Source: Bacteroidales bacterium
GTDB taxonomy: Bacteria > Bacteroidota > Bacteroidia > Bacteroidales > P3
NCBI GenBank assembly: GCA_017545365.1
Contig: JAFWOP010000167.1
Span: 1 to 6,747 of the forward strand
Direction: 5' to 3'
DNA length: 6,747 nucleotides
Under the pieces are notes generated by a model. The model had not been told where the DNA came from. It made no database searches and saw only the letters and a program-made list of their open reading frames with translations. The position numbers and the translations under genes were made by a program. Shown here one piece after another: positions 1 to 4,655 of the stretch (position 1 is the stretch's first letter; each line of letters begins with the position of its first letter).

Positions 1-84
1 TGGTCAATGGTCAATGGTCAATGGTCAACGGTCAATGGTCAATCCTCAACTCTCAACTCTCAATTCTCAATTCTCAATTCTCAA
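1..84 (+). repeat. Tandem heptanucleotide array TCAANNN inside miaA
   Basis: Twelve consecutive 7-bp units with no spacing error: TGGTCAA four times, CGGTCAA, TGGTCAA, TCCTCAA, CTCTCAA twice, TTCTCAA three times, followed directly by unique miaA sequence at base 85. Every unit keeps TCAA and varies in the other three bases. The array reaches the left window edge, so its full length is unknown. It is read in the miaA frame as a Q/S/N/L-rich peptide. Because 7 is not a multiple of 3, all three forward frames cycle through the same codons, and none holds a stop in the array. Confidence 0.95.
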
Positions 85-415
85 GATTGGCCTCACCCTG
101 CCCCGTGAGGAAATTTACGAACGTATCAACCGCCGAGTAGACGCAATGATGTCAAATGGCTTGCTAGAGGAGGCACAACGTCTTTTGCCAATGCGTCATC
201 TGAATGCACTAAACACCGTGGGCTACAAGGAAATGTTTGCCTATCTTGACGGCACTTGGTCGCTGGAGGAGGCTGTGGAGCGCATGAAAGGAAACACCCG
301 TCGGTATGCCCGCAAGCAACTCACCTGGTTCAAGCGCGACCCAGCAGTGACGTGGTTCGCACCCGACCAAGAGGAGGAGATCCTTGAGCTGATACTAAAA
401 CTTCATGGTGAGTGA
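1..415 (+). CDS. miaA: tRNA dimethylallyltransferase MiaA, C-terminal part (5' end outside window)
   Basis: MiaA transfers a dimethylallyl group to N6 of A37 in tRNAs that read codons starting with U; it acts in the cytoplasm. Only the C-terminal part is present. The frame is already open at base 2, and the stop is TGA at 413-415. Recognisable MiaA segments begin at KIGL (codons from about 80), followed by PREEIYERINRRVD, the highly conserved NALNTVGYKE, and the basic ARKQLTWFKRD near the end. The family is usually about 300 residues, so roughly the last 110 conserved residues are seen. The ATG at 14 lies inside a heptad repeat and is unlikely to be the true start, because the catalytic P-loop half must lie upstream. 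The stretch before KIGL is encoded entirely by heptad repeats (bases 1-84) and looks like an insertion in a loop. The end overlaps tex by 21 bp, tail to tail. Confidence 0.93.
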   Translation, partial: GQWSMVNGQRSMVNPQLSTLNSQFSILKIGLTLPREEIYERINRRVDAMMSNGLLEEAQRLLPMRHLNALNTVGYKEMFAYLDGTWSLEEAVERMKGNTRRYARKQLTWFKRDPAVTWFAPDQEEEILELILKLHGE

Positions 416-2533
416 GATGCGGTGGCGGCGCATGTCCACTTCTACGACCTTCACTTCCACATGCTGATGAAGCTTCACCACGTCGGTGGGGTGAGCAATG
501 CGGCGGTTCGCCATTTGCGAGATATGTACGAGACCGTCCTGGTGAACGCCGATGTCTACGAAAGCACCAAAGTTGGTGATGTTGGTGACGATGCCAGGCA
601 GAATCATGCCCGGGACGAGGTCCTCGATTTCGTGAACACGGCTGTCGAAACTGAACTCTTCTAGCTGCTCTCGTGGGTCACGGCCAGGCTTTTCCAGCTC
701 GTGCATAATGTCCTGAAGGGTAGGGAGTCCCACAGTGTCGGTGGTGTAGTGCTTGATGTCTATCTGGGAGCGCAGTTCCTTGTTACTAATCAAATCAGCC
801 ACGGTACATTGCTGGTCTTGCGCCATCTGCTCAACGATGGCGTATGACTCTGGGTGTACGGCAGTATTGTCCAGCGGGTTCTTGGCTCCGGGTATGCGCA
901 GGAAGCCGGCGCACTGCTGATAGGCCGACGGCCCCAGGCGTGGCACTTTCTTCAGCTGGGCACGGGAGGTGAAGGGACCGTTCTCGCGACGGAAGTCCAG
1001 GATGTTCTTTGCCAGCACAGGTCCCAGGCCGCTGACGTATTGCAGGAGGTGGCTAGAGGCGGTGTTGAGGTTCACACCCACTAGGTTCACACAGCTCTCC
1101 ACGGTCTGATCGAGCTGGTGCTTCAGCTTCGTCTGGTCTACGTCGTGCTGGTACTGGCCTACGCCGATGCTCTTGGGGTCGATTTTCACTAACTCGGCCA
1201 AGGGGTCCATGAGGTGGCGGCCAATGGAGACGGCACCGCGAACAGTGACATCCTCGTCGGGGAACTCGTCGCGGGCGACCTTCGAGGCAGAGTAGACGGA
1301 GGCACCGTCTTCGCTGACTACAAAAAGACCCACCCCTTCCTTAATACAGTCTTCCACAAAGGCGCGGGTCTCTCGACTGGCAGTCCCGTTGCCGATGGCG
1401 ATGGCCTCAATCTGGTAGTCGGCAATCATTTGCTGCAGGTGGACAGTGGCCTGCATACGCTTGTTAATGGGAGGGTGGGGGAAGATGGCTTCATGGTGGA
1501 GCAGGTTTCCCTGTGCGTCAAGGCACACCACCTTACAACCAGTACGGAAGCCTGGGTCGATGCCCATGACGCGCTTCTGTCCCAAGGGAGCACCAAGGAG
1601 CAACTGGCGCAGGTTCTCGGCAAAGACGCTGATGGCCTCCTCGTCGGCCTTTTGTTTGCTCAGAGCGGCGAACTCGGTTTCTATGGAGGGTTTAAGCAGA
1701 CGTTTGTAGCTGTCCTCCACGGCCTCGGCGACAAGTCGTGAACAAGCGTTGTTGCTACGAACGTAAAAGTCTTTCAACTTGTCGATGCACTCCTGGTCAT
1801 CGATGGGGTCGATGCTCAGGCGAAGGATTCCCTCGCTCTCACCACGGCGCATGGCCAGCAGACGGTGGCTGGAGCAGCGGCGCAACGGCTCGCTCCAGTC
1901 GAAGTAGTCGCTGTACTTGGCGGCCTCGTCGGTGTCGGCCTTGGCTTTTACTACCTTTGAACTGATGATGGCCGTGCGACGGAAGAACCCACGTATTTGC
2001 TGGCGCGAGCGTTCATTCTCGTTGATATTCTCGGCGATGATGTCCTGAGCACCACGAAGGGCTTCCTCTATTGATAATTGACAATTGATAATTGACAATT
2101 GATGGGCGGCAGCCTGTTCAGGGTCGCGCTCACGCTGGAGCATAAGGATTTCAGCCAATGGCTCCAGCCCTTGTTCACGAGCTATCTGGGCGCGGGTGCG
2201 GCGACGGGGTTTGTAGGGAAGATAGAGATCCTCGAGCACGGTGGCATCCCAGCAATCGTCGATGCGGCGTTGCAATTCGGGAGTCATCTTCTCCTGTTCG
2301 GTGATGGTCTTGACGATGGTTTCCTTGCGCTTGGCAATATCCTGCAGCCGTTGGCTCTGGTCGCTGATAGCAGCTATCTGAACCTCGTCGAGACCGCCAG
2401 TGCGCTCCTTGCGGTAACGCGATATGAAGGGTATGGTGCAACCCTCCTCAAGGAGTGTCAGCGTATTGCCCACTACCTCCAGGCTGAGGCCCAAGTCCTG
2501 GGCAATCAGCTTTGCGAATATACTTTTTTCCAT
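395..2533 (-). CDS. tex: Tex family transcription accessory protein (S1 RNA-binding domain)
   Basis: Tex is a conserved cytoplasmic nucleic-acid-binding protein linked to transcription; its exact role is still poorly defined. The 712 residues have the family's full length and order: an N-terminal helical Tex region (about 1-190, with TIPFISRYRKERTGGLDE at 33-50), a YqgF/RNase H-like domain (about 320-445, with GIDPGFRTGCK, GNGTASRET and SEDGASVYSAS), helix-hairpin-helix motifs (about 490-546, with SGLGPVLAKNI and VPRLGPSAYQQCAGFLRI), and a C-terminal S1 domain (about 642-711, with GIVTNITNFGAFVDIGVHQDG). The start is the ATG read from 2533; no Shine-Dalgarno sequence is visible, as is usual in Bacteroidetes. 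The stop is TAG at 395-397. Residues 145-155 are encoded by a heptad repeat insert just before EEALRGAQDIIAE, in frame. The leader holds the 11-bp repeat array. The gene may be read through from the GH13 gene upstream, or have its own promoter that I could not identify. Confidence 0.96.
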   Translation of the reverse strand: MEKSIFAKLIAQDLGLSLEVVGNTLTLLEEGCTIPFISRYRKERTGGLDEVQIAAISDQSQRLQDIAKRKETIVKTITEQEKMTPELQRRIDDCWDATVLEDLYLPYKPRRRTRAQIAREQGLEPLAEILMLQRERDPEQAAAHQLSIINCQLSIEEALRGAQDIIAENINENERSRQQIRGFFRRTAIISSKVVKAKADTDEAAKYSDYFDWSEPLRRCSSHRLLAMRRGESEGILRLSIDPIDDQECIDKLKDFYVRSNNACSRLVAEAVEDSYKRLLKPSIETEFAALSKQKADEEAISVFAENLRQLLLGAPLGQKRVMGIDPGFRTGCKVVCLDAQGNLLHHEAIFPHPPINKRMQATVHLQQMIADYQIEAIAIGNGTASRETRAFVEDCIKEGVGLFVVSEDGASVYSASKVARDEFPDEDVTVRGAVSIGRHLMDPLAELVKIDPKSIGVGQYQHDVDQTKLKHQLDQTVESCVNLVGVNLNTASSHLLQYVSGLGPVLAKNILDFRRENGPFTSRAQLKKVPRLGPSAYQQCAGFLRIPGAKNPLDNTAVHPESYAIVEQMAQDQQCTVADLISNKELRSQIDIKHYTTDTVGLPTLQDIMHELEKPGRDPREQLEEFSFDSRVHEIEDLVPGMILPGIVTNITNFGAFVDIGVHQDGLVHISQMANRRIAHPTDVVKLHQHVEVKVVEVDMRRHRISLTMKF
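2071..2103 (-). repeat. Heptad array TCAATTR inside tex
   Basis: On the + strand the units are TTGATAA, TTGACAA, TTGATAA, TTGACAA and a partial TTGAT. On the tex coding strand they read as TCAATTG alternating with TCAATTA, a 14-bp super-unit. They encode tex residues 145-155 (QLSIINCQLSI). The run is 33 bp, 11 codons, so the frame is preserved. It lies in the N-terminal region between RERDPEQAAAH and EEALRGAQDIIAE, both of which look like normal Tex sequence. Confidence 0.92.
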
Positions 2534-4610: not shown

Positions 4611-4620
4611 TTCGATCAGA

Positions 4621-4655
4621 GATTTGAGGTTTGAGATTTGAGATTTGAGGTTTGG
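4621..4655 (-). repeat. Heptad array TCAAAYC in the leader of the GH13 gene
   Basis: On the + strand there are five exact 7-bp steps: GATTTGA, GGTTTGA, GATTTGA, GATTTGA, GGTTTGG. Bases 4614-4620 (GATCAGA) may be a decayed sixth. On the strand of the GH13 gene the units read as TCAAATC and TCAAACC, so they share the TCAANNN frame of the miaA and tex arrays. The array occupies 35 of the 53 bp between the stop of the acidic protein gene and the start of the GH13 gene, ending 10 bp before the start codon, where a ribosome would bind. Confidence 0.92.

What the first reader, a model, noticed from the sequence alone, without database searches (positions are those of the whole stretch)
1..4655. One family of TCAANNN heptad repeats in three places, always in sense orientation
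Arrays at 1-84 (in miaA), 2071-2103 (in tex) and 4621-4655 (leader of the GH13 gene) differ in sequence but share the rule TCAA plus three free bases, every 7 bp. In all three the TCAA strand is the coding strand of the gene concerned, although miaA is on + and the other two on -. In this direction the repeats are free of stops in any frame (checked for the miaA array; the tex array is open in its own frame), while the opposite strand carries TGA in every frame. Three conforming arrays in 6.7 kb suggest a genome-wide class of repeat that is spread or kept by a specific process and filtered by translation. They resemble in form the heptanucleotide STRR repeats of cyanobacteria, but with a different sequence.
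Basis: partly seen in the sequence, partly recalled or inferred. Interest (0 to 1): 0.8.

Follow-up and report, generated by a model that had tools for sequence, protein, structure and literature searches.

The report
Seven-base repeats threaded through bacterial genes
A gut bacterium carries many short tandem repeats with a seven-base step, many of them inside ordinary genes, where the surviving versions nearly always keep the protein readable; in genes they were seen to differ by blocks of 21 bases, and some copies lack the stop signals that their orientation would otherwise bring.

Summary
The three arrays are real (12 hits, 0 in 200 shuffles) and belong to a genome-wide class: 784 hits to four TCAANNN steps. 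In a 590-kb sample of 4.75 Mb, TCAA with its complement ranks first of 256 tetramers at period 7.

The sense rule holds inside genes only: 33 of 33 arrays, since TTGA brings TGA in every frame. Beside start codons intergenic arrays are mixed, 11 sense and 8 antisense over three genomes.

New here: antisense arrays do enter genes, as a 21-base super-repeat with TCA where TGA would be in frame. Of the C-type sites read, 16 of 17 lie in a gene on that strand; of T-type sites 0 of 7, and 0 of 25 in other genomes. Near-identical proteins differ by whole 7-residue blocks. Against the nearest relative, in-gene length differences are multiples of 3 in 11 of 12 pairs.

Best reading: heptanucleotide satellites that expand by slippage or recombination, spread by a route not shown, and are filtered by translation: a new variant of known heptamer repeats (STRR, TAACTGA).

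The parts
1..84 (+). TCAANNN array inside miaA; NNN in order TGG x3, CGG, TGG, TCC, CTC x2, TTC x3; 13 TCAA steps on the contig, which ends in the array
   Evidence: relative L067 has RPFRIVKIGL and no array where the window has NSQFSILKIGL
85..412 (+). C-terminal part of miaA (IPP transferase)
   Evidence: PF01715, E 2.1e-33; PDB 2qgn
395..2533 (-). tex, gene holding the second array
   Evidence: PF16921, PF22706 and others; PDB 2oce/3bzc
2071..2103 (-). TCAATTG/TCAATTA array in a hypervariable loop of Tex (QLSIINCQLSI)
   Evidence: the same site in L067 is a decayed array, 4 synonymous and 3 replacement codon changes (sequences)
2697..4610 (-). GH13 cyclomaltodextrinase-like gene
   Evidence: PF00128, PF09087, PF10438
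4621..4655 (-). TCAAATC/TCAAACC array in the leader just upstream of the GH13 start codon
   Evidence: L067 lacks it, with gaps of 20 and 7 bases

Best explanation
The arrays are a lineage-specific satellite with a 7-bp step. Shown: in genes they are sense and stop-free, they nearly always keep the frame, near-identical proteins differ by 7-residue (21-bp) blocks, and antisense copies in genes carry TCA where TGA would be in frame. Inferred: new length alleles arise by replication slippage or unequal recombination in 7-bp steps anywhere in the genome, and translation removes in-gene alleles that shift the frame or bring a stop, leaving 21-bp super-repeats (7 x 3) in variable loops. Inferred, weaker: arrays seed new sites by copying from existing arrays (template switching or ectopic recombination at short A-rich matches), which would explain the few unit types, mosaic arrays and the recurring TCA-adapted unit.
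For: In-gene arrays 28 of 28 (4 or more units) and 33 of 33 (3 or more) sense. Net length difference from the nearest relative G259 is a multiple of 3 in 11 of 12 in-gene pairs and 2 of 9 others. One protein at 94-96% identity has a 7-residue block 4 times (own, P0121), 3 times (P0122-P0125) or once (P0126); an RsmH 98% identical is one such block shorter. Antisense units with a changed G: 17 C-type sites, 16 in a gene on that strand; 7 T-type and 7 A-type, none (31 sites, from 72 places). In other genomes 8 of 19 C-type 21-bp sites lie in genes on that strand and 0 of 25 T-type. Array-free sites in MurE and RsmH of relatives.
Against: One in-gene array (L047:13075, with a palindromic core) differs by 82 bases and shifts the frame near the end of its gene. 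8 of the 11 in-frame differences are not multiples of 7, so other indels took part. Pure slippage does not explain the few unit types, types joined in register (window 1-84) or the same G-to-C change again and again; spread was never seen directly. The 21-bp T-type pattern is commoner in the family than the C-type (65 against 36 hits). That the C sits at the in-frame stop position is forced once a gene spans such an array, so it is no extra evidence; A-type cannot occur in genes since TAA is a stop; the test is C against T. Gene calls come from a home-made codon scorer with some errors.
Confidence: 0.6

Rival explanations
1. A mobile element family (REP/RAYT-like, with a single-strand Y1 transposase) inserts palindromic cores with their flanking heptads, and arrays are its remains.
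For: 7 of 12 occurrences of CGCTCGGCC in the first 328 kb of the own sample lie in a palindromic core flanked by TCAA heptads; in other genera inverted arrays flank short spacers; three Y1_Tnp matches in the own genome.
Against: Most of the 45 arrays printed with flanks show no such core; Y1_Tnp is matched in 18 of 39 array-rich and 54 of 162 other genomes (counted by eye); no fixed ends or regular target duplication seen by eye at the paired sites.
Confidence: 0.15
2. The arrays are kept for a function in mRNA, as leader elements that bind a regulator or keep the start site unstructured.
For: In the own sample 8 of 10 start-adjacent intergenic arrays (within 60 bp) are sense; TAACTGA heptamers lie mostly so in one Beggiatoaceae genome (PMC4679880).
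Against: G198 and G161 together show 3 sense and 6 antisense; 28 of 43 own arrays are inside genes; the nearest relative has different leaders at paired sites.
Confidence: 0.1
3. Plain local slippage from native seeds, with no copying between sites.
For: At RsmH the relative has single TCAATGG and TTGAC seeds where the own gene has arrays of such units; heptanucleotide repeats are the commonest long simple repeats in most genomes of an older survey (as cited in PMC4679880).
Against: Four unit types make 150 of 228 units although they are about 9% of TCAANNN in the sample; mosaic arrays; one adapted unit recurs in about 11 genes.
Confidence: 0.2

Closest known systems
TAACTGA heptamer direct repeats of Beggiatoaceae, cyanobacteria and five Bacteroidetes (MacGregor 2015, PMC4679880; abstract, search passages and sections 12 and 15 read)
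   Same: 7-bp tandem units, genome-wide, patchy across lineages, often beside start codons; inside genes only in the stop-free orientation, a point that paper makes
   Different: Different unit; there mostly intergenic, here 28 of 43 in genes; that paper reports related heptamers as rare, here units vary at several positions; 21-bp stop-avoiding super-repeats did not appear in the parts read
Cyanobacterial heptanucleotide STRR repeats (recalled) and GGGNATC repeats of Xanthomonas and Nostoc (PMC4692102, abstract read)
   Same: Heptanucleotide tandem arrays spread over the genome; the GGGNATC unit is partly degenerate
   Different: Sequence unrelated; the GGGNATC repeats are over-represented in non-coding DNA and form quadruplexes in vitro
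Rickettsia palindromic elements in genes (recalled; search listing only)
   Same: Repeats inserted in frame in ordinary proteins at tolerant sites
   Different: These are tandem heptads, mostly without a palindromic core
Coding VNTRs (recalled)
   Same: Length alleles in whole units in close relatives
   Different: Here the 21-bp unit is itself three 7-bp units

Membership tests
TAACTGA heptamer repeats (PMC4679880) | unit TAACTGA | tested here: not met
   units are TCAANNN types
TAACTGA heptamer repeats (PMC4679880) | mostly intergenic, forward, just upstream of start codons | tested here: not met
   28 of 43 in genes; start-adjacent intergenic arrays mixed over three genomes
Cyanobacterial STRR | heptanucleotide tandem repeat, many copies per genome | tested here: met
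Cyanobacterial STRR | STRR unit sequences | not tested
   published units recalled only, not compared
Rickettsia palindromic elements | in-frame insertion in protein genes | tested here: met
   11 of 12 in-gene pairs in frame
Rickettsia palindromic elements | each copy a palindrome | tested here: not met
   most arrays printed lack a core or an inverted arm (read by eye)
REP/RAYT system | Y1 transposase with the repeats | tested here: not met
   no Y1_Tnp match at E <= 0.001 in 21 of 39 array-rich genomes, some of them incomplete
Coding VNTR | length alleles in whole units among close relatives | tested here: met
   7-residue steps in two proteins

The most novel reading that the evidence does not exclude
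A self-spreading heptad satellite: existing arrays act as templates that overwrite or enlarge short A-rich stretches anywhere in the genome, loops of essential proteins included, and gene-adapted 21-bp versions free of stops have evolved and now spread from gene to gene as coding-compatible selfish DNA.
Probability: 0.25. Interest if true: 0.85.

Novelty: new variant of a known kind. Interest (0 to 1): 0.6.

Why it matters
It gives a natural system in which a satellite meets the genetic code. A 7-bp step and a 3-bp code give 21-bp alleles, and antisense copies live in genes only without their in-frame stops. The question of how short repeats spread in bacterial genomes becomes testable by comparing strains, and the case shows how variable loops of core enzymes can be filled with repeat DNA. 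It also warns annotators that peptides such as QLSTLNSQ or SPLTIDH in these proteins are repeat-derived.

Tried and rejected
RAYT/Y1 transposase as a required driver: matched in 18 of 39 genomes with 50 or more hits and 54 of 162 others, counted by eye from the printed lists; not required. Universal sense orientation: refuted by two other genomes, chosen because they are array-rich. RNA family match in the window: none at gathering scores. The 21-bp TTCA pattern as such: controlled by the TTTA pattern, which is commoner in the family (65 against 36 hits). I fetched 20 stretches holding 25 of the T-type hits: 0 lie in a called gene on that strand, 4 in a gene on the other strand, 21 in none; one (L334) lies in a long open frame just upstream of a called start codon. 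Chimeric assembly as the source of in-gene arrays: proteins with the same array come from other sources (ena, jgi; for P0001 and P0126 no source is given). Sampling: the first 20 own stretches came from contigs with hits, the next 20 mostly from contigs or remainders without (L204 reads N); joint density predicts 825 genome hits against 784 found. Gene calls: L033:3859 was called intergenic but reads to me as in-gene; L047:16242 was called in-gene and not. Print searches listed no report of TCAANNN heptads in Prevotella; only the open-licence library was searched.

Full report
What is there. The window is nearly the whole of a 6,801-bp contig of a 4.75-Mb genome. The named tex relatives found are almost all MAGs or isolates of Prevotella or Prevotellaceae, many from ruminants, the nearest from a yak (L067, 94% best segment). 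The three arrays are as reported. The contig ends inside the miaA array.

Genome-wide class. Four TCAANNN steps occur 784 times in the genome, the reversed pattern 59 times. I read a sample of 590,017 bp, 587,337 of them known bases. Its density predicts 825 hits for the genome, so it is fair in total, although I chose the two halves from array-rich and array-poor contigs. Among all tetramers at period 7, TCAA and its complement lead with 43 arrays of 4 or more units, median 0; TCAA at periods 5, 6 and 8-13 gives 0. Found by self-match alone, 48 of 74 period-7 arrays are TCAA types. The firm core is T-AA rather than TCAA. Of 201 genomes of the same family 107 have a hit, from 0 to 784, with large swings inside one genus; of 296 genomes of the phylum 113 have one, mostly few.

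Genes. With a simple codon scorer, 28 of 43 arrays (4 or more units) lie in genes, 28 of 28 sense; with 3 or more units 33 of 33. RsmH is borne out by solved relatives; by my own reading of the ORFs others are MurE, MurG, a RelA/SpoT-like protein and Dxs. Intergenic arrays show no such rule: those within 60 bp of a start codon are 8 sense and 2 antisense in the own sample, 0 and 4 in G198, 3 and 2 in G161. In those two genomes 3 of 22 arrays lie in genes, so heavy entry into genes is not general.

Array-free sites and frame. Against the nearest relative (G259, the genome of L067), 21 own arrays could be paired. In 12 pairs the own array lies in a called gene. In 11 of them the length difference is 24, 42, 84, 3, 33, 99, 6, 27, -6, 54 and 0, all multiples of 3. 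In the twelfth (L047:13075, three units beside a palindromic core) it is 82: the gene runs on in a shifted frame and ends about 20 codons later, while the frame resembling the relative continues elsewhere, so this insertion seems to cut a gene short near its end. Of 9 pairs outside genes 2 differ by a multiple of 3. Only 3 of the 11 are multiples of 7. MurE gains 11 residues (33 bases) and RsmH 33 (99 bases) where relatives vary. In Tex 11 sequences of 81 have a heptad-type loop, all of 21 residues; most of the rest have 19; most heptad-type forms are decayed. Two other tex genes (L098, L103) carry an array in a second variable loop. At miaA and at the GH13 leader L067 has no array.

Alleles. 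The protein at L031:10381-11586 (a source names a relative L-fucose isomerase-like) has a 7-residue block four times in the own genome and in P0121, three times in P0122-P0125 and once in P0126, at 94-96% identity. The DNA is a 21-bp repeat of three heptads. An RsmH 98% identical is one 7-residue block shorter. In related RsmH proteins the same loop holds other sequences, some of them repeat-like.

Stop-tuned antisense arrays. Allowing two mismatches, genes of the own and G259 stretches hold 40 sense and 6 antisense near-arrays. Four of the six have one mismatch, and in each it turns an in-frame TGA into TCA. Genome-wide, 72 places fit TTHANNNTTGANNNTTGA, 28 of them C-type by my count of the list. 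In the 30 loci fetched there are 31 distinct sites: 17 C-type, of which 16 lie in a gene on that strand; 7 A-type and 7 T-type, none of which does. One of the 16 (L234) is not array-like; the other 15 lie in about 11 genes. In other genomes, of 19 C-type 21-bp sites read, 8 lie in a gene on that strand, 10 in none and 1 on the other strand. T-type hits are commoner in the family (65 in 26 genomes, against 36 in 18), but 0 of 25 read lie in a called gene on that strand. That the changed base sits at the in-frame stop position follows from the geometry, since the other two units bring TGA in the other phases; A-type would bring TAA. The contrast that counts is C against T. It shows that translation selects the tuned version, and the recurrence of the same base suggests, without proving, that tuned units are copied between genes.

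Mechanism. Shown: stop filter, near-complete frame filter, 21-bp alleles. Inferred: the generating step is slippage or unequal recombination by 7 bp; the older proposal of polymerase slippage at heptanucleotides is known to me only through PMC4679880. How arrays reach new sites is open. For copying: few unit types, mosaic arrays, the recurring tuned unit, array-palindrome composites. For local birth: matching native seeds at RsmH. A Y1 transposase is not required.

Known kinds. Heptamer repeats with the same stop-driven orientation in genes are published for TAACTGA. The present case differs in unit, in mass entry into genes and in the tuned 21-bp arrays. I therefore file it as a new variant of a known kind.

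Noticed in passing
window 2546-2598 and 2659-2697: Inverted arrays of an 11-bp unit (GGGAGTGAAAG) between tex and the GH13 gene, shorter in the relative L067; a similar inverted pair at L036:11306-11456 is absent from the relative.
   Followed up: partly
window 6641-6746: 22-bp repeat TTGTAGTACAAGACCATATCTT, 4.8 copies at 98%, at the other end of the window; 14-mers of it count up to 11 in the first 328 kb of the sample, the window's own copies included.
   Followed up: no
L046:14303, L047:11333, 13127, 13442, L048:3134, L050:18, 3486: A palindromic core holding CGCTCGGCC, flanked by TCAA heptads, some copies inside genes.
   Followed up: partly
L040:7389-7429, L048:4236-4269: Heptads of CATTTTT/CACTTTT type in called genes; the one at L040 lies just after the start codon and reads to me as the hydrophobic part of a signal peptide.
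   Followed up: no
RsmH loop, P0001-P0040; tex L073, L140: One loop of RsmH holds different repeat-like peptides in related proteins (IDHSPLT, LSSPEGDTIV..EAPSGAVGGA, ELGVRSEEL); the second type also sits in tex of L073 and L140.
   Followed up: partly
G161 and G198 stretches (L295-L314, L275-L294): Arrays within 60 bp of a stop codon are 10 antisense and 1 sense to that gene in these two genomes, 5 and 6 in the own sample.
   Followed up: partly
L047:13014-13092: An array with palindromic core near the end of a gene with dockerin-like repeats shifts the frame, against the rule seen elsewhere.
   Followed up: partly
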